From contig NZ_HF545616.1 of the NCBI RefSeq assembly GCF_000723465.1, positions 1,612,001-1,676,000 of the forward strand: a DNA stretch of 64,000 nt, written 5' to 3'. The notes beneath the pieces were generated by a model, which worked only from the letters and a program-made list of their open reading frames with translations, was not told the origin of the DNA and ran no database searches. Positions 52,438 through 64,000 of the stretch are shown here, one piece after another. The stretch's first letter is position 1. The number at the start of each line of letters is the position of its first letter. The translations under genes and the position numbers were made by a program. The stretch is from Ruminococcus bicirculans (ex Wegman et al. 2014). Its GTDB lineage: Bacteria; Bacillota; Clostridia; Oscillospirales; Ruminococcaceae.

Positions 52438-54009
52438 ATGAGCGAGGAAAACCGCACAAACGCTCCTGAGGAAGAGCTTACTCAGGAGGACATAAACAGC
52501 TTAAAGAAGATAAGAATGGACAAGCTTGAAGAGCTGAAAGCCAAGGGCAAGAATCCATTTGAGATAACAAAGTATGACGTTACGGCAAGCTGTGCCGAGG
52601 CTAAAGCACAGTATGAAAAGCTTGAGGCTGAGCTGAAGTCACAGGCAGGCGAGGACGAGGAAAAGCTCAAGGAGCTTCTCGAGGCAAACCGCATAACAGT
52701 AAGCGTTGCAGGCAGAGTAATGTCAAGACGTCTTATGGGCAAGGCAAGCTTTTTCGACCTGAGAGATAAGAGCGACAAGGTTCAGGTCTATCTGAGAATG
52801 AACGAGATCGGCAAGGAAGAATTTGACGATTACAAGAAGGGCGATATCGGTGATATCGTTGGCATTGAGGGCTTTGTATTCAGAACAAAAATGGGCGAGA
52901 TATCAATTCACGCTCAGAAGTTCGTACTGCTTTCAAAGTCGCTTCTGCCGTTGCCTGAGAAGTGGCATGGTCTGAAGGATCAGGACACTAGATACAGACA
53001 GAGATACACAGACCTTATATGCAATCCTGAGGTAAAGGACACATTTATAAAGAGGTCGCAGATAATCTCATCTATCAGAAGATATCTTGACAGACAGGGC
53101 TTTATGGAAGTTGAGACTCCGATGCTGGTATCAAATGCAGGCGGAGCTGCCGCAAGACCATTTGAGACACACTACAACGCACTTGACGAGGACGTTAAGC
53201 TGAGAATTTCTTTGGAGCTTTATCTGAAAAGACTTATTGTCGGCGGACTTGAAAGAGTATACGAGATAGGCAGAGTATTCAGAAACGAGGGTGTTGACGC
53301 AAGACACAATCCTGAGTTCACTCTTATGGAGCTTTATCAGGCATACACAGATTACTACGGCATGATGGATCTGACGGAGAATATGTTCAGGCACGTTGCA
53401 CAGGAGGTATGCGGCACAACTTGCGTACCTTACGGTGACGTAATGATAGATCTTGGCAAGCCTTTTGAGAGAATGACGATGATCGACGCAGTTAAGAAGT
53501 ATTCTGGTGTTGATTTCTCACAGGTAGCCACAACAGAAGAGGCAAAGGCACTTGCAGACGAGCATCACATTGAATACGAGGCAAGGCACAAGAGGGGCGA
53601 CATACTCAACCTGTTCTTTGAGGAATATGTTGAGGAGCATCTTATTCAGCCTACATTCATAATGGATCACCCTATCGAGATTTCTCCACTTACAAAGAAG
53701 AAGCCAGAAAATCCTGACTATGTAGAAAGATTTGAGCTTTTCATCACAGGCAGAGAAATGTGCAACGCATACTCAGAGCTGAACGATCCAATAGATCAGC
53801 GTGAAAGATTTGCGGCACAGGAAGAGGCATTGAAGCAGGGTGACGAGGAAGCAAACCACACAGACGAGGACTTCCTGAGAGCTTTGGAGATAGGTATGCC
53901 ACCTACAGGCGGTATTGGTTACGGCATTGACAGACTTGTTATGCTGCTGACTAACTCCCCGGCTATTAGAGATGTGCTGTTGTTCCCTACAATGAAGACG
54001 TTGGAGTGA
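52438..54009 (+). CDS. lysS: Lysyl-tRNA synthetase, class II
   Basis: This 523-residue enzyme charges tRNA-Lys. The N-terminal 20 residues are a charged extension. The OB-fold anticodon domain (about 60-180) has AGRVMSRRLMGKASFFDLRD. Motif 1 lies in RYLDRQGFMEVETPML, motif 2 in FRNEGVDARHNPEFTLMELYQAY and motif 3 in GIGYGIDRLVMLLT. The RBS GAAAGGA is 8 bases before the ATG. It ends the greA-lysS unit and marks the left edge of the defence island. Confidence 0.96.
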   Translation: MSEENRTNAPEEELTQEDINSLKKIRMDKLEELKAKGKNPFEITKYDVTASCAEAKAQYEKLEAELKSQAGEDEEKLKELLEANRITVSVAGRVMSRRLMGKASFFDLRDKSDKVQVYLRMNEIGKEEFDDYKKGDIGDIVGIEGFVFRTKMGEISIHAQKFVLLSKSLLPLPEKWHGLKDQDTRYRQRYTDLICNPEVKDTFIKRSQIISSIRRYLDRQGFMEVETPMLVSNAGGAAARPFETHYNALDEDVKLRISLELYLKRLIVGGLERVYEIGRVFRNEGVDARHNPEFTLMELYQAYTDYYGMMDLTENMFRHVAQEVCGTTCVPYGDVMIDLGKPFERMTMIDAVKKYSGVDFSQVATTEEAKALADEHHIEYEARHKRGDILNLFFEEYVEEHLIQPTFIMDHPIEISPLTKKKPENPDYVERFELFITGREMCNAYSELNDPIDQRERFAAQEEALKQGDEEANHTDEDFLRALEIGMPPTGGIGYGIDRLVMLLTNSPAIRDVLLFPTMKTLE

Positions 54010-54112
54010 TAAACCCTTGATCTTGCGGGGTTTTCAGCAGGTCTAACCGACGGCTTACGCCAATTTTACGCCAATCGGTCAGAAACTTATAAAAAAATAT
54101 GATAACATATGA

Positions 54113-54152
54113 GAGATCACTGATGTTTTGGTTCATCGGTGATCTCTTTTTT
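54113..54152 (+). terminator. Terminator after lysS
   Basis: GAGATCACTGATG and CATCGGTGATCTC arms (one wobble pair) with T6. It lies between lysS and the integrase remnant. Confidence 0.85.
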
Positions 54153-54156
54153 ATTA

Positions 54157-54285
54157 TTATTCGGCACTGCCGCCTTTGAGAAGCTTTTCAAGGGTCTGAA
54201 ATTCTTTCTTTTTGAAGTCGCTCGTGGCGTCGGTGTAGACGTTCATCGTGGTGCTGAAATCTGAATGGCCGAGGACGTTGCAATT
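54157..54285 (-). pseudogene. C-terminal remnant of a tyrosine site-specific integrase
   Basis: On the minus strand the last 42 or so codons of an integrase are intact to a TAA at 54157-54159. They read NVLGHSDFSTTMNVYTDAT followed by SDFKKKEF, which is the conserved end of Tn916/phage integrases with the active-site His (GHSDFSTT) and Tyr (VYTDAT). Upstream, the frame meets a TAA at 54286-54288 and no further integrase sequence is seen, so the gene was cut at the island junction. Its higher G+C compared with the sequence to the right suggests it belonged to an earlier element. Confidence 0.85.
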
Positions 54286-54339: not shown

Positions 54340-54368
54340 TTGAATAATTCGTCAAAATGTGGTATAAT
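54340..54368 (+). promoter_or_regulatory. Sigma-A promoter of the defence operon
   Basis: TTGAAT at 54340-54345, 17 bases, TATAAT at 54363-54368, about 30 bases before the first ATG. The gap 54010-54403 holds this, the lysS terminator, the integrase remnant and a tandem TTACGCCAAT motif near 54055-54076. Confidence 0.8.
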
Positions 54369-54403: not shown

Positions 54404-55891
54404 ATGAGTAAACCTATTACTTCTATACCGAGTGCTAATATCTTGCTTTCTTCGCTTCGCTCTGTGGGATATACTCCTGAAACAGCAATAGCAGATATTG
54501 TTGATAACAGCCTGTCTGCTAACGCTTCAGCGATTACCATAGAGTTTAACTGGCAAGAGCAAGTTATTATCATTTCAGATAATGGCGATGGTATGTCTGA
54601 GCAAGAATTACTGAAATCTATGAATATAGGTTCCTCAGATCCGCTTAATTCGAGAAGCATTCATGACCTTGGGCGATTTGGTATGGGAATGAAAACTGCC
54701 TCATTCTCTCTTGGAAAGAAATTAACTGTTCTTGCAAAGACCAGCGGTATCATTAATAATGCGAGCTGGGATTTAGACTATGTCAGAAAAGAGGATAAAT
54801 GGCAGATACTCGTTGAAGAAAGATCCTCTTTGTCTATCCAACAATTGTCAAATAGAATTTCAGAGTATGACAATGGAACTGTTGTATGCATTTCTAACAT
54901 CGATAAGGTTATATCATCTAATTCTGCTAACGAGAAGAAAAAATTCTATAAAATGATAGATAACGTGAAAAATCATCTTTCACTTGTGTTCCATAGGTTT
55001 ATGGAATCGGGGAAAATGTCTATTATTGTAAATAGAACGCCGCTAACTCCATGGAACCCCTTTATACCAGACAACAAAGCTCGTCAGGAATTAGAGCCTG
55101 AGGAAGTAAACGAAAATGGTCATAAGGTTGTGATACGCCCCTATGTCCTTCCGCATAAAACCAAATTTGCAAATGATGATGAAGTTAGAGCTGCCGGAGG
55201 ATATAAAGGTTGGCTTCACCATCAAGGCTTTTATGTTTATCGAAATAAACGCTTAATCATATATGGAACGTGGTTTGGATTATTTAAGAAGGAAATGTCC
55301 TTTAACCTAGCAAGAATACAGTTGGATATATATTCGGACAGTGACTTTGACTGGCAGATAGATATAAAAAAGTCAAAAGCTGTTCCTCCAGCTTATACTG
55401 ATGATATTATTCGGATCGCTGCTGAGAAAGCAACAAAGCAATCGGTAAAGGTATATAATTCAAGAGGTACATATTCTGATCGGAAAGGAAATGCACATGC
55501 TCCTCAGCTTAGTTATGTCTGGGAACAGCGAAAGGATTCAAGAGGTTCATATTCTTTTTTCCTTAATAAAAAGCATACTTTGCTGAATAAACTAAAAATT
55601 ACACTTTCTGCCGAACAAAAAGAACTATTAAATGCTTATCTGAACCTTGTTGAAAAATGCTCCCCTATGGAGCTTTCAGGAGTTAATGATATGTCAGTAA
55701 GCAAGGGTGTTCTGCCTGAAAATGAATACAACGAACTTGCATACCAAGCTAAACGGTTAATTTCAACCTTAACAATCAACGGCAGCTCAAAAGAAGAAAC
55801 AGGAAGCCTTTTACAACAACTGCCAGATTACTCTGCCTTGATGGACGATTTTGATAATATATATATGGAGGCCTGCAATGGAACAAAATGA
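54404..55891 (+). CDS. MORC-like GHKL ATPase of a restriction-type defence system
   Basis: This 495-residue protein begins with a GHKL (Hsp90/MutL/histidine kinase) ATPase domain: YTPETAIADIVDNSLSA (N box with the catalytic Asp/Asn pair, about residues 25-41), ISDNGDGMSEQEL (G1 box) and DLGRFGMGMKTASFSLGKKL (G2 box). It goes on with an S5-like transducer segment to about residue 330 and a helical C-terminus. The layout resembles bacterial MORC/MutL-type ATPases linked to restriction-modification genes. It would change shape with ATP to load or clamp DNA. The following gene overlaps by 14 bases. Codons are A+T-rich compared with the housekeeping genes. RBS AAAGGA. Confidence 0.85.
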   Translation: MSKPITSIPSANILLSSLRSVGYTPETAIADIVDNSLSANASAITIEFNWQEQVIIISDNGDGMSEQELLKSMNIGSSDPLNSRSIHDLGRFGMGMKTASFSLGKKLTVLAKTSGIINNASWDLDYVRKEDKWQILVEERSSLSIQQLSNRISEYDNGTVVCISNIDKVISSNSANEKKKFYKMIDNVKNHLSLVFHRFMESGKMSIIVNRTPLTPWNPFIPDNKARQELEPEEVNENGHKVVIRPYVLPHKTKFANDDEVRAAGGYKGWLHHQGFYVYRNKRLIIYGTWFGLFKKEMSFNLARIQLDIYSDSDFDWQIDIKKSKAVPPAYTDDIIRIAAEKATKQSVKVYNSRGTYSDRKGNAHAPQLSYVWEQRKDSRGSYSFFLNKKHTLLNKLKITLSAEQKELLNAYLNLVEKCSPMELSGVNDMSVSKGVLPENEYNELAYQAKRLISTLTINGSSKEETGSLLQQLPDYSALMDDFDNIYMEACNGTK

Positions 55892-56585
55892 ACTGAGAAC
55901 ATACGAAGCCGCTTTTACACTGTGCCTTGGGGAAAAAGAAAAGGGGCTTGAACCGGTTGAAGCCATTAATAAGATCGTAGATATGATGGTACCTCTTGTT
56001 TCTAACTCTGAGGATTTAAGAGAATATCTTTATAGAGAGGTTAGTTTTTCGAGTAATGACATAGCATCAATGCTTAGTGCCGATAATCGTAAAGGCAAGG
56101 ATAAAGAATGGTGGAATAGTCTCAGGCAGACTTCCGGTTTTAAAGGAACATACTGGAACAGGTATAAAGCATATTTATCCGGCACAAAGAAGTGGAGCCA
56201 AAAAACCATCGAAAAAAGTATTAACGAACCTACTGACTTTGTCATGAACTGTATCTCAAATCCAAACTCCGGCGTTCCTGAAAAATCATACGGTGCCGTA
56301 TTCGGTTATGTTCAGTCAGGTAAAACGGCTAACTATATCGGACTTATAAACAAAGCTGTAGATGCAGGATATAGAATAATAATAGTTCTCGCAGGTATGC
56401 ATAATAACCTGAGAAGCCAGACACAGATGCGTATTGACGAGGAAGTTCTCGGTTTTGAAACCTATAATGTCCCCCTTGTCAAGACACAAATGAAAAAAAT
56501 TATCGTGACAGCGAAAACTTTGTATAGCCATCCAAAAAACGTAAGCAAAATTTATGCAGCATTGCATACAGACTTGGCTTGGTAA
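55878..56585 (+). pseudogene. 5' part of Z1-domain gene, interrupted by IS3 element
   Basis: The start ATG at 55878 follows GGAGG and overlaps the end of the ATPase gene. The native sequence runs to about 56462 (195 codons); beyond that the frame continues inside the insertion sequence and stops at 56585. The fragment is helical at first and then has GYVQSGKTANYIGLINKA, a Walker A-like motif of superfamily 2 ATPases (about residues 145-162), followed by IIIVLAGMHNNLRSQTQMRID (motif Ia region). The rest of the gene is at 57800-59987. Removing 1,341 bases (element plus one 4-base duplicate) puts GFET directly in frame with SIEYLKKKSGLVPS. As it stands, the protein would be truncated and lack its helicase and nuclease parts. 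Confidence 0.85.
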
Positions 56586-57385
56586 ACCTGCACAGGCAAC
56601 TTGTAGCCAAGCGCCTGATGGGGTCTTTCGTTGTTGTAATCCTTGATGTAACTACCAATCTGCTGGCGCAGCTCTCTGGGATTGCTGTATTCATTGATAT
56701 AAATCAACTCCGTTTTCAAGCTGCGAAACCAGCGTTCAATTACCACATTATCCACCCATCTAGCTTTTCCGTCCATACTCTGGCGGATATTCTTCGCTTT
56801 CAGAAATTCAATATAGTCATTGCTTGTAAACTGGCTGCCCTGATCAGAATTGATAATTTCAGGATTGCCGTATTGTTCCATGGCATTTGTGACTGCTGCT
56901 AAAACCGGTGCAGTATCCAGCGTATCAGACAATTCATAGCCCACGATAAAACGGCTGTACCAATCAATAATCGCTGTCAGATACATATGGCTACGCCCCA
57001 TTTTGATATAGGTGATGTCAATTGACCATACCTGATTTGGTCGGTCAATTTTTAGATTTTTCAGCAGATACGGAAATTTTAAACTGTTCTTTCCGGGCTT
57101 TGAAAGATTGGATTTCGGATAAACCGGACAGATATTCATTTCCGCCATATAACGTCTGACAAGCTTTCTGCCGATTGCAATCCCGTCTTCCTGTACAAGC
57201 TTTTCTTTGATTTTCCGATGACCAATGTAGCAGAATTTTGTGTGCCAGTAGTCAATACGTGATTTGATGTATTCCTCACGCTCCAAGGCTTTTTCTGCCG
57301 GTTCAACAGGCTGATAGTACATCGAAGTGCGGTTGATTTCAAGCAGTTCACACTGTTCCTTAATGTTCAGCCTATCATTCTTCAT
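56552..57385 (-). CDS. IS3-family transposase, OrfB (DDE integrase core)
   Basis: This 277-residue protein has an N-terminal HTH_21-like region (INRTSMYYQPVEPAEKALEREEYI and YIGHRKIKEKL) and the rve DDE core. WSIDITYIKMG contains the first Asp, PEIINSDQGSQFTSNDY the second, and GKARWVDNVVIERWFRSLKTELIY the catalytic Glu. DYNNERPHQALGY is the typical end. The ATG at 57385 overlaps the OrfA stop by 11 bases and is in the +1 phase relative to OrfA. It should work together with OrfA. Confidence 0.95.
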   Translation of the reverse strand: MKNDRLNIKEQCELLEINRTSMYYQPVEPAEKALEREEYIKSRIDYWHTKFCYIGHRKIKEKLVQEDGIAIGRKLVRRYMAEMNICPVYPKSNLSKPGKNSLKFPYLLKNLKIDRPNQVWSIDITYIKMGRSHMYLTAIIDWYSRFIVGYELSDTLDTAPVLAAVTNAMEQYGNPEIINSDQGSQFTSNDYIEFLKAKNIRQSMDGKARWVDNVVIERWFRSLKTELIYINEYSNPRELRQQIGSYIKDYNNERPHQALGYKLPVQVYQAKSVCNAA

Positions 57386-57713
57386 AACCAGACTTTTCCT
57401 TCCAGTCAGGTCCGAGCACTTCTTCAGATTTTTTTTTGAGCCAGTCCACCTGAACTGTCAGGTGACCGATTTTCTGCATAAGCTTTTCTTCCCGCTTTTT
57501 TGAGTTCTCAGCTGCTCTTTTTGCTTCCTTTTCTGATTTTGAACCATTAAAGGCACGGGATGCATTCTCAAGAAATTCCTTTTTCCAATTTTTCAGCTGA
57601 TTGACGTTGATTCCTTCACGACTTGCTATCTCGCTGATCGTCTGCTCTCCCTCCAGTATTTCTATTACGATTTTTGCCTTGTACTCCGGTGTGTATGTGT
57701 TCCTCTTCGCCAT
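57375..57713 (-). CDS. IS3-family transposase, OrfA
   Basis: This 112-residue protein has a helix-turn-helix of the HTH_Tnp_1 type (YTPEYKAKIVIEILEGEQTISEIASREGINVNQLKNWKKEFL in sense) and a leucine-zipper-like helix at the end (IGHLTVQVDWLKKKSEEVLG). An A9 run codes for the three lysines, a possible slippery site. The RBS AGGAGG is 8 bases before the ATG at 57713. It binds the element ends. Confidence 0.93.
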   Translation of the reverse strand: MAKRNTYTPEYKAKIVIEILEGEQTISEIASREGINVNQLKNWKKEFLENASRAFNGSKSEKEAKRAAENSKKREEKLMQKIGHLTVQVDWLKKKSEEVLGPDWKEKSGYEE

Positions 57714-57875
57714 TATCGTGTCCTCCTGTTTCTTTCTTTTATTATACCACTGTCACGATGTTTTGGCAATTTTGTGTTCAGTTTCTAGGGTACATTATAA
57801 ACCAGTATAGAGTATTTAAAGAAAAAATCTGGTTTAGTTCCGTCAGTAATAGGTGTTGGTAATCTTAACTTTAAG

Positions 57876-59987
57876 ATGGATAAGTCAATAGAACCTCTTA
57901 CATCAAGAGATGAAAAAGGCGACTTCACAAAAAATAGAGCAAGTGTAAGTAAACTATACGAACAGCCTAAAATTTTCATTGTAAAAAAGAAAAACACTGT
58001 TTTACAATGCATTTATGATAATTTGTCAAAAAATCATGCTATTGTTACGAATCCTGACGGCAAAAAGAAATTCCCATGTGAATATTCGCTCCTTATTATC
58101 GATGACGAAGCAGATCAAGCTTCAGTAAATACAAAGTATAAAACTGATCGTAACGGTGAAATAAGTGACGAATCAGATGTATCAAGAATTAATGAATTAA
58201 TTAGAAAAATATTATCTCTTTTCTCATGCCGTTCCTACGTTGGTTATACTGCCACACCGTATGCTAATGTCTTTATTCCCCCGCAGATCAGCGATGATGA
58301 GCTTGAAGATGATTTATTCCCTAAAGATTTTATAGTATGTCTTCCGAAGCCGGCAGGTTATGTTGGAGCGATGGAGTTTTTCGGAGAAGATGAAAACAGC
58401 GAAACAATGCCTCTACGCAGAAGAATTACCACCGAACTCGATAATTTCATTGATTCTAAGACCAAGCAGATTATCTCACCGCTTCCTGACGAATTGAAGA
58501 AAGCAATTCTTTGCTTTATAATAATAACAGCTGCGAGAAATGTTAGAGGTCAGGTCTTGGAGCCTAACTCTATGCTGATTCATGTCAACAGGCTGAATGA
58601 CGTTCAGAATTCACTGAAATCAATGGTTGACGATTATTTCAGCGAAGTACAGTCATATATTAACGGCGGTGACACAGAAATAATTGATACCCTGCATGAT
58701 TTGTGGGACAAAGATTTTGTTCCTACAACAAAGAAAATGCAGCAGGACTTCTCTGCTTACATGGAGGGCGTAGACTGCTCTGATTGGAGCGATGTTGAAA
58801 CAGAGATCAAGCGTCTTATCGGCAATCACCAGATTAGAGTGTTTGAAATTAACGGAAAAAGCGATGATGTTCTCTGCTATAAAGAATTCAAAGATGAAGA
58901 CCGTCAGCTTAATGTTATTGCGATTGGCGGAGACAAGCTTTCACGAGGATTAACGCTTGAGGGATTGACAGTAAGCTTCTTTATGCGTTCTTCTCAGATG
59001 TATGATACCCTTATGCAGATGGGCAGATGGTTTGGCTTCAGGCCTAAATACACTGACCTTTGCCGGCTTTTTGTTTCTGATGAACTGTTCCGCTGGTTCA
59101 TGGTTGTTTCTTTTGCGACAGAAAACCTGCGCAACCAGATTCATTATATGAACGAATATAACCGTACACCTATGGATTTCGGTTTAAGAATTGCATCTTA
59201 CCCTGATATGCTGATCTCAGCAAGAAATAAACTTATAACAGGACAAGAGTGCACCCTTACATTCAGCAATACAGTAAGCCAAACAAGATCAATGGACAGA
59301 AATGCGGATACATATAATCTGAACTTTGAAGCGGTGGAAAGATTTATCTCCAATCTTGGAGATATTAGTTCAGATCACTGGGATAAACTTGATAGAAAAT
59401 CCGGCACCGACCATATTTTTTGGGATGATGTTGATGGAAGCCTTGTGGCTGATTTCTTGTCCGAATACAGAACATCGTCAAACGCAAGCAAAGTCAAGTC
59501 ACTGTTTTTAGCCGACTATATCCGTGACCAAATTTTGTTAGGCGGACTTACGAAATGGACAGTGTGCCTGAAAAATACTGGACGCAAAAATCCCCCTTTA
59601 ACCATTGGCGGCTGCAGTATAGGACAAGGTTTGAAAAGAAGCGAAGGTCAATATGAGGCTGATGCTTCTATATGCTCCATAAAATCGCTAAAGTCTAAGG
59701 ATGAAGAGTACCTTGACTTCTCAAAAGAGCAGTTTGAAGAAATGAAACAGATGAAAGCAAAGGGAGACAGTGACGATAAGATAAGAAAACAACTGAGAAC
59801 GAGAGACCGTGGTTTGCTTATTCTTTGTCCTCTTGATACAGAAGAAATAGCCGGATTAAAAATAGACGGACAGACATACAAGACACCTTTCGGATTTATT
59901 GCTGTATTTCCGGATAATGAAGGAAAAGGAAATGGCAGGACATACCGATTGAATCCTATCGCAATTGAAAATGGTGATGAATTTTGA
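57876..59987 (+). pseudogene. 3' part of Z1-domain superfamily 2 protein, split by IS3
   Basis: The native frame resumes at 57804 after the duplicated AACC; the first in-frame ATG is at 57876, giving 703 codons. LLIIDDEADQASVNTK is the DEAD-type motif II, CRSYVGYTATPYANVF motif III, and NVIAIGGDKLSRGLTLEGLTVSFFMRSSQMYDTLMQMGRWFGFR corresponds to motifs V and VI (quoted in parts), with the arginine finger in the last. The Z1 domain occupies the middle. Such proteins are predicted helicase-like motors of restriction systems. The restored protein would have about 922 residues. A remnant product from the ATG at 57876 would lack the P-loop and hence ATPase activity. Confidence 0.88.
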
Positions 59988-61018
59988 GTAATGCTATAAA
60001 AATATATCAGGAGATCATTGCTGACTTTAAAAAAGCAGAGAATTCCAGTTTAACTGTATTGAATAGAAGTATTCTCCTGAAAAATAAAATACGAATTGTC
60101 TATATTGTTGCTGCAAAGGATCACCAGAGAATTATTGCAGTAATGCTGCCCAAAGACTGTACTAAGGAGCCTCTGAGCCGTTTCCCCAAGTGGCACGGAA
60201 TAGAATTTGCATATGATCATATCACTGAATATCAAAATCCGAACAGTGAGAACGAGTACATAATCATTTCTCAGTCAAAGGACTACGACAGCGGCATTTT
60301 TGAAATAATAGCCAACGACATCACCGATCAGCTTGAAAAAATAAGCACTCAAAAGAAAATGATAAGCTGCTTGTCAGACACGTTAAGCAAGTGGAAAAAG
60401 TTCTTTGCACTCAATTCCGATGTTATTATGTCGGAGCAATTGCAGGAAGGTCTTTATGGGGAATTGCTTGTCCTACAAAAGCTGATATTCAATTTTGGTG
60501 ATGAAGCTGTATCATATTGGAGCGGAGCTGATAAGGAAACTCACGATTTTTATGTGAATGGATCTGCGATTGAAGTAAAGACAACATCTGCAAAATCAAA
60601 TGAAAAGATAAGGATCAGCAGTGAACATCAGCTTAACCCTAAAGATGTGGAGAACACATTGTTTCTGTATGTCAATATGGTAAGAAAGAGCCGCAGCGAC
60701 GGCACAACTTTACCTGAGATTATTAAATCTATCCATAGCGGTATTTCAGAACCATACAGATCTCTTTTTGAGGAGAAACTGTTTAAATACGGCTATATAT
60801 CTTCATGTGAAGAGCGATATACGCTGGGATTTCATCTGAGATCGTACCAAACATACAAAGTTGAGGATACTTTCCCAAATATTGTACCAGATAACCTCGA
60901 TAACGGTATATCAGAGGTAACATACTCACTTGATCTAAACGCCTGCTCAGATTTTGTAATTGAGTGGAGTGATATAATTAATACTTTGAAGGGAGGCATA
61001 TTAATTGGAGAATCGTGA
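59984..61018 (+). CDS. PD-(D/E)XK nuclease-like protein (DUF4420-like)
   Basis: This 344-residue protein starts with a TTG that overlaps the Z1 stop (TTGA), so it is coupled. The region around residues 145-205 has the restriction-endonuclease fold: EGLYGELLVLQKLIFNFG with the first Glu, WSGADKETHDFYVNGSAIEVKTTSAKS with the catalytic Asp (HDF) and E-x-K. This matches the PD-(D/E)XK motif family found in Z1/MORC operons. It would be the nuclease that cuts foreign DNA. The rest is helical and variable. It overlaps the AIPR gene by 14 bases. Confidence 0.82.
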   Translation: MSNAIKIYQEIIADFKKAENSSLTVLNRSILLKNKIRIVYIVAAKDHQRIIAVMLPKDCTKEPLSRFPKWHGIEFAYDHITEYQNPNSENEYIIISQSKDYDSGIFEIIANDITDQLEKISTQKKMISCLSDTLSKWKKFFALNSDVIMSEQLQEGLYGELLVLQKLIFNFGDEAVSYWSGADKETHDFYVNGSAIEVKTTSAKSNEKIRISSEHQLNPKDVENTLFLYVNMVRKSRSDGTTLPEIIKSIHSGISEPYRSLFEEKLFKYGYISSCEERYTLGFHLRSYQTYKVEDTFPNIVPDNLDNGISEVTYSLDLNACSDFVIEWSDIINTLKGGILIGES

Positions 61019-62771
61019 ATTAGATGATTTTAATCAGGAGTTAATAGAAGAAGTCAAGGAATATGCCTCGGAGCATTCTGAAAATACAGAAAGCGCCTTT
61101 ACAAGCGTTTTTCTATCTTATCTTGCTGATTTTGGCGAATCAAAAACTGCTGATGCAGAAGTAAGCTACTGCATGAAAGAGTCAGAAAAGTTTAAGGTTA
61201 ATGCGTATGCTTTCAGTGAATATTTTCAAAGCCTCACTCTCATAGTCAGCTGCTATGAAAAGAACGGCAAAATTGAAAAGCTAAACAAATCGGAAACAGC
61301 CAAGATATGCAGACAAGCGTCTAAATTCTATAAATTATGCTGTTCAAGCATGAGTGTTCTTGATGAAATGGAAGAATCATCAAACGAATATATGCTTTAT
61401 GAGTTCATAAAGGAAAATAAAGATAAAATCGAAAATCTTTATGTTGTTCTCCTTACTAATAAGCTTATTAACAGCGATTTGCCGGAAGATGCCATGATAA
61501 ATAAAACCACCGTAAAATATGATGTGTGGGATATTGAACGTCTTGTTCAGGCTGTCTACCAGAGGAAAGAAGCAGAAAAACTTGTAATACGTTTTAAAAA
61601 CAAATACAAGTATAGACTGAAACTCATCAAGATACCGCAGGAGAGCGATGTTTATGACTGTTATGTTGGCTACATATCAGGAGAATGCTTAGCGGAAATA
61701 TACCGTGATGAAGGTCAGCGGCTTATTGAAAAGAATGTCAGATCGTTCCTGCAAGCGACAGGAAAGGTCAATAAGGGCATCAGAGATACATTGAGGAGCA
61801 ATCCGGCAATGTTCATGGCGTATAACAACGGTATTTCTACGATTGCTGAGAAAGTTGTCATAGATGAAAATGAAAGCACCAATGATTTTATTCTCATAAA
61901 AGAGCTTGTCGGCTGGCAAATTGTTAACGGCGGTCAAACAACGGCATCAATATATGCTGCCTTTCAAAACAAAGTGGATCTTTCCAATGTTAATGTTCAG
62001 ATGAAGCTTACAGTAATTAAAGCTGATGAGCAGATGGATACCGTAATAAGCAACATATCAAGGTACGCAAACAGTCAAAACAAGATTACCATGTCTGATT
62101 TCAGTGCTAATGATGATTTCCATATTAAGCTTGAGCAGCTGTCAAGACGTGTGTTCATTCCTGTTGAAAAAGGAAAGCCTTCTCAGCGATGGTTTTATGA
62201 ACGTGCAAGAGGACAGTACAGTGTTGAAGTTAACAGACAGCTTACTGCTGCATCAAAGAGAAAATATAAAGAGCAAAATCCTAAGAATAAATGCATCTCA
62301 AAGACAGTGGCCGCTAAGTGTGCGATGTGTTGGCTGAGACACCCTGATATTGTCAGTAAGGGGTTAGAAACAAACTTTATTAGATATTCTGAAATGATAC
62401 AGTCCGGTGAAATCCAAGAGCCAGATGAAAAGTTTTATTGCAATCTTATTGCTCAGGTTATTCTTTTTCAGAAATGTGATAAAATAGTAGATGCTCAGAA
62501 TTTCGGTGGATATAAAGCTCAACTTAATTATTATACGATTGCTCTGCTATCAGAGTATTATGGCGATAGGGTTGATTTCAGCTATATATGGCAGCATCAG
62601 AACATATCTCCTGAAATATCACAGCTTATAGAAAATCTATGCTATAAAGTTTGGAATCATTTCATGAATCCAAATACGAATAACGCAAAGGGCGTTAATG
62701 TAACTCAATGGTGTAAAAAAGAAGATTGCTGGATAATGCTTAAAGAGCGTTTTCAGAACGATTCTATATAA
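61005..62771 (+). CDS. AIPR family protein (abortive infection phage resistance)
   Basis: This 588-residue protein begins with TTG at 61005, 9 bases after GGGAGG. The AIPR signature runs over about residues 240-380: LIEKNVRSFLQATGKVNKGIRDTLRSNPAMFMAYNNGISTIA and WQIVNGGQTTASIYAAF, VNVQMKLTVI and ISRYANSQNKITMSDFSANDDFH (in parts). The family was named from lactococcal abortive-infection proteins and occurs in restriction-type operons. Biochemical activity is unknown to me. An N-terminal domain of 130 residues with YCMKESEKFKVNAYAFSEYF may be a helical adaptor. It is intact here. Confidence 0.88.
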   Translation: MENRELDDFNQELIEEVKEYASEHSENTESAFTSVFLSYLADFGESKTADAEVSYCMKESEKFKVNAYAFSEYFQSLTLIVSCYEKNGKIEKLNKSETAKICRQASKFYKLCCSSMSVLDEMEESSNEYMLYEFIKENKDKIENLYVVLLTNKLINSDLPEDAMINKTTVKYDVWDIERLVQAVYQRKEAEKLVIRFKNKYKYRLKLIKIPQESDVYDCYVGYISGECLAEIYRDEGQRLIEKNVRSFLQATGKVNKGIRDTLRSNPAMFMAYNNGISTIAEKVVIDENESTNDFILIKELVGWQIVNGGQTTASIYAAFQNKVDLSNVNVQMKLTVIKADEQMDTVISNISRYANSQNKITMSDFSANDDFHIKLEQLSRRVFIPVEKGKPSQRWFYERARGQYSVEVNRQLTAASKRKYKEQNPKNKCISKTVAAKCAMCWLRHPDIVSKGLETNFIRYSEMIQSGEIQEPDEKFYCNLIAQVILFQKCDKIVDAQNFGGYKAQLNYYTIALLSEYYGDRVDFSYIWQHQNISPEISQLIENLCYKVWNHFMNPNTNNAKGVNVTQWCKKEDCWIMLKERFQNDSI

Positions 62772-62800
62772 TATGCCGTCAGAATAGGAGAATTAGTGAA

Positions 62801-64000
62801 ATGCATAAGGTAATTGATTTGTTTGCCGGTGCCGGAGGTCTAAGTCTGGGATTTAAGCAAACAGGCAAATATGAAATTGCTGCTGCATTTGAAATAAATC
62901 AAAATGCGCAGGAAACATACAAGAAAAATCATTCGGGAACAAAAGTATTTTCTGATGTGTGTTCAGCAGACTTTGTAAAACTAGGAGAGAAACTCGGAAA
63001 TATAGATGTCGTTATTGGAGGTCCCCCTTGCCAGGGATTCTCAATGGCTAACAGACAGAAGAATCGTATTATAAGCCAAAACAATATGCTTGTAAAGCAA
63101 TATGTCAGAGCTGTAAAGGAACTAAAGCCTAAGGCATTTGTCATGGAGAACGTTGAAATGCTAAAATCTGACGTTCATAGATTTTATTTGCGTACCGGCG
63201 AGACAGAGATAATCGATGAATATAACATTGAAACTACTCCATCAGAGATTCTGCTCTTGGAAGGAAAATACTTCTCAAAAGAAATATTCGAGGATATTCG
63301 CAGTCTGCATGAAGTTGAAGCAAGACTTTGGCCTGAGGAAGATTACAAGCTGCTTAACATTGCATATCGTCAGCGAAAAAACCTGAAGAAGTGCAGAGAA
63401 GCTTTATACCGCTATCAGAAAAAGTATCTTAAACTTGCAGAAAAGATAAAACAGGCTGATAATAATGGAGTATATGAATGTTTCGACGCAGCAGCAGATG
63501 CCATTTTTGACTTCTTTGATAAAATAATAGATGCAGATCAGGTGGTAAAACGCATTGAAAAAACAATTATGATTCAAAGATGTCTTTCACGAATAAAGGA
63601 AATCTATGATAATGAACTGCAAATAGATGAGATTATTTGCCAGAACGGTATTGTAGCTGTTATACAGTCATATTCTGTTCTTGAATATATCACTAAGATG
63701 CTTGGAAACTACACTTTTAACATGGGAGTACTGAATGCATTGGAATTTGGCGCGCCGCAGAGAAGAAATCGTTTTGTATTTATTGGGGTAAAGAATGAAA
63801 TTGCTCAAAACATCGAAATGCCCACAGGAACATTTACAAAAGATAATTACAATACTGTAAAAGATGCCATAAAAGATATTGAGAACGTACGAACCGTATT
63901 TGAAACATCTGAAGACAGTGGTGCAGAACTAACAGACGATTTTGAACCAACGTCGCTTACCCCTCTTCTCAGAGATAGTAAAAAGTTGTATAATCATATT
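62801..64000 (+). CDS. DNA (cytosine-5-) methyltransferase, N-terminal part
   Basis: The frame is open from ATG 62801 (RBS AGGAG at 62786-62790) for 400 codons to the window edge. Motif I is VIDLFAGAGGLSLGF (residues 4-18), motif IV GGPPCQGFSMANRQ with the catalytic Cys (about residues 73-86), motif VI MENVEML (about 115-121) and motif VIII FGAPQRRNRFVFIGV (about 315-329). The distance between motifs VI and VIII is about 200 residues, much longer than the 40 or so common in M.HhaI-type enzymes, because of a helical, Lys/Glu-rich insertion. It would methylate host DNA for self-protection. The target recognition domain is beyond the window. Confidence 0.93.
   Translation, partial: MHKVIDLFAGAGGLSLGFKQTGKYEIAAAFEINQNAQETYKKNHSGTKVFSDVCSADFVKLGEKLGNIDVVIGGPPCQGFSMANRQKNRIISQNNMLVKQYVRAVKELKPKAFVMENVEMLKSDVHRFYLRTGETEIIDEYNIETTPSEILLLEGKYFSKEIFEDIRSLHEVEARLWPEEDYKLLNIAYRQRKNLKKCREALYRYQKKYLKLAEKIKQADNNGVYECFDAAADAIFDFFDKIIDADQVVKRIEKTIMIQRCLSRIKEIYDNELQIDEIICQNGIVAVIQSYSVLEYITKMLGNYTFNMGVLNALEFGAPQRRNRFVFIGVKNEIAQNIEMPTGTFTKDNYNTVKDAIKDIENVRTVFETSEDSGAELTDDFEPTSLTPLLRDSKKLYNHI

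What the first reader, a model, noticed from the sequence alone, without database searches (positions are those of the whole stretch)
54404..64000. MORC-type restriction-modification-like operon: GHKL ATPase, Z1, PD-(D/E)XK, AIPR and cytosine methyltransferase
Five genes in one direction with overlaps or short gaps encode a GHKL ATPase (DNGDGM, GRFGMGMK), a Z1/SF2 motor (DEAD, TATP), a nuclease with HDF...EVK, an AIPR protein and a 5mC methyltransferase. This set was, to my recollection, predicted from gene context as a MORC/MutL-linked R-M system (Iyer, Abhiman and Aravind 2008), but its mechanism is little studied. The operon has its own promoter, A+T-rich codons and an integrase remnant at its edge, all signs of transfer. 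The role of AIPR in it is especially unclear.
Basis: partly seen in the sequence, partly recalled or inferred. Interest (0 to 1): 0.8.

Follow-up and report, generated by a model that had tools for sequence, protein, structure and literature searches.

The report
Broken MORC-type restriction (MZA-like) operon
A bacterial anti-virus operon of a known but barely understood kind was found with its DNA-motor gene cut in two by a jumping element; its puzzling AIPR protein looks more like a ParB/DndB-type control protein than a toxin.

The parts
54009..54278 (.). att-like direct repeat plus 3' end (antisense) of a tyrosine integrase gene: left edge of the ~15.5-kb MZA/SIR2 segment
   Evidence: 95-97% identical to L002:17800-18066, where the 3' end of an open integrase gene lies
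54340..54368 (+). candidate sigma-70 promoter TTGAAT-17-TATAAT
   Evidence: consensus match only, region weakly above shuffles
54404..55891 (+). mzaB-like GHKL (MORC/paraMORC) ATPase, 495 aa, motifs intact
55878..56462 (+). [not shown]
   Evidence: MzaC profile positions 74-197 PADLOC, 78-191 NCBIfam
56463..57799 (-). IS3-family (IS150-like by recall) insertion sequence, two transposase ORFs, 1337 bp, ends TATAATGT...ACATTATA, flanked by AACC
57800..59987 (+). [not shown]
   Evidence: MzaC profile 203-811 PADLOC, 198-794 NCBIfam
59984..61018 (+). mzaD-like DUF4420 PD-(D/E)XK nuclease; E160, D188, E197xK199, Q216 intact
61005..62771 (+). mzaE-like AIPR protein: AIPR_N (RE-fold topology, no (D/E)xK motif) + AIPR core (ParB/DndB-like) + helical C-terminus
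62801..64000 (+). C5-cytosine DNA methyltransferase (527 aa; runs past window end to 64384); Vsr follows overlapping its end (L002:12363-12782)

Best explanation
[not shown]
For: Gene families. Insertion: eight copies identical over 1337 bp, AACC on both sides here. Order B-C-D-E in 76 of 80 best-scoring genome loci, MTase in 74, Vsr in 52, median intergenic distances -4, -17, -8. Tree: window in a supported clade of 7 without sigma; 26 sigma rows need 3 changes against a shuffled mean of 23.3 (quick method). Catalytic residues conserved: MzaB 106, MzaC 104, MzaD 107, DCM 107, Vsr 66 sequences. MzaB nearest MORC in PDB. AIPR_N: (D/E)78-x-K80 in 0 of 105, and no HEPN motif in a conserved column. 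AIPR core: first four PDB fold hits all ParB-N; viral fold hits include GmrSD_N (E 7e-4) and DndB-like proteins (0.07-0.11); hhalign to DGQHR 35.5 against a maximum of 22.4 in 40 column shuffles and 21.4 with five unrelated families.
Confidence: 0.6

Rival explanations
1. The operon is an abortive-infection system: AIPR carries an N-terminal HEPN RNase or other toxin that kills the cell when the R-M-like sensor is triggered (prediction for AIPR in PMC3506569).
For: AIPR is named for abortive infection; PMC3506569 states that AIPR proteins have an N-terminal HEPN toxin domain (passages); PADLOC links MzaE to AbiU (5.5e-24); a loose R-x4-6-H string is found somewhere in 75 of 105 MzaE proteins.
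Against: The stricter R-[NDHQ]-x3-4-H string is in 16 of 105, the window's MzaE lacks even the loose one, and the only columns over half His are 373 and 448, both outside the N-domain. The model's N-domain is helix, three strands, helices, strand, not a helical HEPN bundle.
Confidence: 0.2
2. Repair-like rather than restriction-like: MzaB-MzaC-MzaD-Vsr act as a dedicated MutL-UvrD-MutH-like pathway that repairs deaminated 5mC made by the operon's MTase.
For: MutL-like ATPase, helicase, RE-fold nuclease and Vsr together with a C5 MTase; Iyer 2008 draws the parallel.
Against: No Vsr was found in 28 of 80 loci (some cut at contig ends) and the MTase moves around the core; the related mzaABCDE is called a validated defence system (PMC9523054; primary paper recalled, not read); patchy distribution: 4 of 295 genomes of the order, 3 of 29 of the genus, own included.
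Confidence: 0.1
3. The operon is only decaying baggage of an integrative element, with no function left at all.
For: mzaC and the SIR2 gene each split by identical IS copies; flanking integrase repeats.
Against: The other frames are open with conserved catalytic residues; mzaE against a 99%-identical gut scaffold shows 16 synonymous and 4 non-synonymous differences, but mzaD 1 and 5 and the mzaC 3' part 0 and 1, too few to settle it; this does not test expression after the insertion.
Confidence: 0.25

Closest known systems
[not shown]
   Same: Same set: GHKL ATPase, SF2 helicase with DThhQXuRhFG, RE-fold nuclease with E-D-ExK, cytosine methylase, Vsr, AIPR
   Different: Here the helicase gene is interrupted; no other difference was found in the parts of the paper that I read
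'Type II' putative defence system of PMC9523054 (Nat Commun 2022; section 11 read)
   Different: Exact subtype (II-A/II-B) could not be compared; this copy is broken
MZA anti-phage system (mzaABCDE; NCBIfam NF041932-NF041935, PADLOC MzaB-E)
   Same: Homologous B, C, D and E in the same order
Dnd/Ssp phosphorothioate systems (DndB, DUF262 proteins DndI/SspE)
   Same: Works-like comparison only: a ParB-fold regulatory module beside a modification-based restriction system
   Different: No phosphorothioation genes among the operon's genes; AIPR core lacks the DGQ(H/Q)R arginine

Membership tests
[not shown]
[not shown]
   DTLMQMGRWFG in the 3' part; PF10593 8e-71
[not shown]
   E160, D188, E197xK199 at 1.0 in 107 sequences; topology fits; fold search itself uninformative
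[not shown]
[not shown]
   IS at 56463-57799: a broken member
MZA (mzaABCDE) | homologues of MzaB, C, D, E in order | tested here: met
   PADLOC 1.2e-80; 5.8e-31 and 2.8e-113 for the two mzaC pieces; 8.4e-16; 4.1e-95
MZA (mzaABCDE) | scores over NCBIfam equivalog cut-offs | tested here: not met
   312.8/850; 115 and 483.6 for the two mzaC pieces/1500; 119.4/420; 407.5/1050: related, not filed as MZA proper
MZA (mzaABCDE) | sigma factor MzaA | tested here: not met
   no hit of my sigma profile in window, L002 or L003; upstream in 24 of 80 genome loci, 26 of 105 tree rows, mainly one clade
ParB/DUF262/DndB superfamily (AIPR core) | fold | tested here: inconclusive
   PDB first four ParB-N but E 0.2-0.7; GmrSD_N E 7e-4 in BFVD
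ParB/DUF262/DndB superfamily (AIPR core) | GxxR / DGQ(H/Q)R motif arginine | tested here: not met
   NGGQT, T312 invariant
HEPN RNase (AIPR N-terminus) | conserved R-x4-6-H | tested here: not met
   no conserved column; strict string in 16 of 105, loose string in 75 of 105, absent from the window's protein
Active PD-(D/E)XK nuclease (AIPR N-terminus) | (D/E)-x-K on the third strand | tested here: not met
   0 of 105
Anti-phage system | protection in a plaque assay | not testable with these tools
   needs an intact relative

The most novel reading that the evidence does not exclude
AIPR proteins of MZA-type systems, and perhaps the AIPR family at large, are ParB/DndB-fold switches without the canonical arginine, built on a dead restriction-endonuclease fold. 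They read the modification state or a nucleotide and control a MORC clamp. 'Abortive infection protein' would then be a misnomer, and MZA and Dnd restriction would share one control logic.
Probability: 0.35. Interest if true: 0.65.

Novelty: new member of a known kind. Interest (0 to 1): 0.4.

Why it matters
MORC ATPases silence transposons in plants and animals, and their bacterial relatives sit in these operons, so an R-M system that pairs a MORC clamp with a motor, a nuclease and a methyltransferase is a direct test bed for what MORC proteins first did. The survey separates the constant parts (B-C-D-E, usually with a C5 MTase) from the branch-specific one (sigma), and gives the least understood part, AIPR, a testable structural hypothesis that contradicts a published toxin prediction. 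This particular copy also shows how such a system is lost: one young IS family has split two neighbouring defence genes.

Tried and rejected
Rejected: MzaB as housekeeping MutL or gyrase. Rejected: AIPR_N as active nuclease or HEPN RNase. Rejected as evidence: direct AIPR-ParB and AIPR-DUF262 profile comparisons. Led nowhere: sequence search of PDB with MzaE (no hit up to E 10), MzaD (best E 0.03) and MzaC (best E 0.097) profiles, none meaningful; PDB fold search of MzaD, whose top hit is the chaperone ExsC at E 0.03, with one endoribonuclease (RnlA, E 0.70) among the 50 rows; MzaE scan of viral contigs, 8 candidates and none confirmed. The gut scaffold MT839664 (99% identical in DNA) begins 208 bp past the IS, at window 58008, so it cannot say whether that copy's mzaC is intact. 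I considered that the IS targets defence genes: 2 of 8 copies lie in this island, so no such claim. Target duplications: found by script in 7 of 8 copies (3 bp in six, 4 bp in mzaC), none at L008; an earlier script had read wrong flanks for the three reversed loci and was redone. Not measured: the background rate of MTase or Vsr in random 20-kb stretches.

Full report

The break. Between 56463 and 57799 lies a 1337-bp IS3-family element on the - strand (transposase families; IS150-like by recall), ending TATAATGT...ACATTATA and flanked by AACC on both sides. The two parts of mzaC match successive stretches of the MzaC profile (74-197 and 203-811). The Walker A motif is in the first part; DDEAD, TATP and QMGRWFG are in the second. 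Eight copies are in the genome, all identical over 1337 bp, with a 3- or 4-bp duplication at 7 of the 8. One of them splits the SIR2 gene downstream. So the inactivation is young, and two neighbouring defence genes are hit.

The vehicle. Window 54009-54278 repeats at L002:17800-18066 with 95-97% identity; the repeat holds an att-like stretch and the 3' end of a tyrosine integrase gene that, in the right copy, is open through its catalytic domain to a start in L003. The MZA/SIR2 segment of about 15.5 kb thus sits between an integrase remnant and a complete integrase gene. G+C is 0.36-0.40 against 0.44-0.46 over 45-54 kb, though other parts of the window also dip. MzaE relatives occur in 4 of 295 genomes of the order (own included, E up to 1e-20), MzaB relatives in 3 of 29 of the genus (own included), the two others at 35-36% identity. 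Taken together these are signs of transfer.

Catalytic residues at 90% or more. MzaB: D31, D34, N35, D59, G61, G63, G90-R91-F92-G93, G95, K97. MzaC: D101, D102, E103, D105; T150-A151-T152-P153; Q406 to G412; Walker A G..QSGKT in 101 of 104. MzaD: E160, D188, E197, K199, Q216 (1.0 of 107). DCM (107) and Vsr (66) keep their own. The window's copies hold these, for MzaC in two separate open stretches. MzaB's closest solved structures are MORC4, MORC3 and MORC2 (4.7e-11 to 1.4e-7), then MutL; the genome's true MutL is elsewhere.

The AIPR protein. An AlphaFold2 model from 74 sequences has mean pLDDT 91.4 and pTM 0.76. Its N-domain runs helix, three strands, helices, strand, the RE-fold topology, but at the place of (D/E)-x-K none of 105 sequences has it. 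No HEPN motif sits in a conserved column: the strict string R-[NDHQ]-x3-4-H is in 16 of 105, the loose R-x4-6-H somewhere in 75 of 105 but not in the window's protein, and the only columns over half His (373, 448) lie outside the N-domain. That goes against the published statement that AIPR proteins carry an N-terminal HEPN RNase (PMC3506569, passages), at least for this subfamily. The same paper says that DndB's N-terminal domain belongs to the AIPR family, and my tests point the same way: profile comparison with DGQHR proteins scores 35.5 (31.0 and 27.7 with two subsets) against a maximum of 22.4 in 40 column-shuffled controls, 15.1 reversed, and 21.4 with five unrelated families. The aligned 63 columns end before the NGGQT motif and the hhalign probability is only 10.8%. 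DGQHR in turn matches DUF262 (55.9) and ParB (40.0). AIPR against DUF262 (20.6) beats its shuffles (17.6) but not unrelated families; AIPR against ParB (16.6) beats neither. In the PDB fold search the first four hits are ParB-N domains, but with E 0.2-0.7; MspJI, Nt.BspD6I and McrBC follow at E 1.8 to 2.6, mixed with unrelated folds such as CutA. Against viral models, after an annotated AIPR protein (6e-14) and four unnamed or uncharacterised ones, come GmrSD_N proteins at 7e-4, 1.4e-2 and 3.6e-2 and 'sulfur modification' proteins at 0.07-0.11, besides others such as RNA polymerase subunit 5 at 0.04. The AIPR motif order NxR, YNNG, NGGQT, NSQN recalls ParB's box order (recalled), but the motif arginine is missing and T312 is invariant. 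As a control, the MzaD model gave no ParB hit among the 50 rows shown.

How it most likely works. Shown: gene content, order, conserved motifs, split motor. Inferred: methylation protects the host; MzaB clamps, MzaC translocates, MzaD cuts; MzaE regulates. The DndB/DUF262 analogy is the ground for the last step: DndB is described as an ATP-dependent repressor, and a DndB-like protein bound ATP and GTP (PMC12704722, passages); ATP hydrolysis by a DUF262 domain sets DndI's DNA affinity, with modification helping release from self DNA (PMC11662687, passages). Another paper leaves open that DndB is a nuclease or degrades nucleotides (PMC10853773, passages), and so might MzaE. With the motor split, restriction should be off here; whether the MTase behind the IS is still expressed is unknown.

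Verdict. The interest lies in the AIPR hypothesis and in the separation of core from branch-specific parts.

Noticed in passing
L002:13192-17510 (beyond the window end): SIR2-domain gene (PADLOC ThsA-like 4.2e-33) split by an IS copy identical to the one in mzaC, with AAG on both sides.
   Followed up: partly
L011:1501-2833 (G000:C1:271905-273237): Another identical IS copy lies between two halves of what looks by eye like a MutS-like ATPase gene (NGGKTTFA); family not tested.
   Followed up: no
L003:13823-16999: About 20 kb beyond the MTase lies an HsdR-like gene (ResIII, EcoEI_R_C) followed by an ORF that looks like HsdM: a second restriction system in the same region.
   Followed up: no
window 54494-54496 (MzaB D31): The GHKL position that is Glu in MutL (recalled) is Asp at frequency 1.0 in 106 MzaB sequences, which may mark an altered ATPase.
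   Followed up: no
L016 (MT839664) MzaD residue 159: A gut scaffold 99% identical to the window has G159W next to the invariant E160 in MzaD; mzaD shows 5 non-synonymous and 1 synonymous differences against 4 and 16 in mzaE.
   Followed up: partly
MT839664, MT836521, MT835895 (L016, L017, L019): Records named 'Bacteriophage sp.' from human faeces hold MZA-type genes; they may be bacterial or mobile-element DNA in virome assemblies.
   Followed up: no
L038 and L056: Two loci carry a second, longer MzaE-like ORF (932 and 883 aa) after the usual one.
   Followed up: no
L029 upstream of MzaB: A relative of the window's 80-aa ORF (L002:12786-13028, no family hit) lies in the Cohnella operon, hinting that it may be a minor partner.
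   Followed up: no
[not shown]
   Followed up: no
whole genome G000: Contigs of 2.24 and about 0.73 Mb resemble the two-replicon layout of Ruminococcus bicirculans (recalled, not tested).
   Followed up: no
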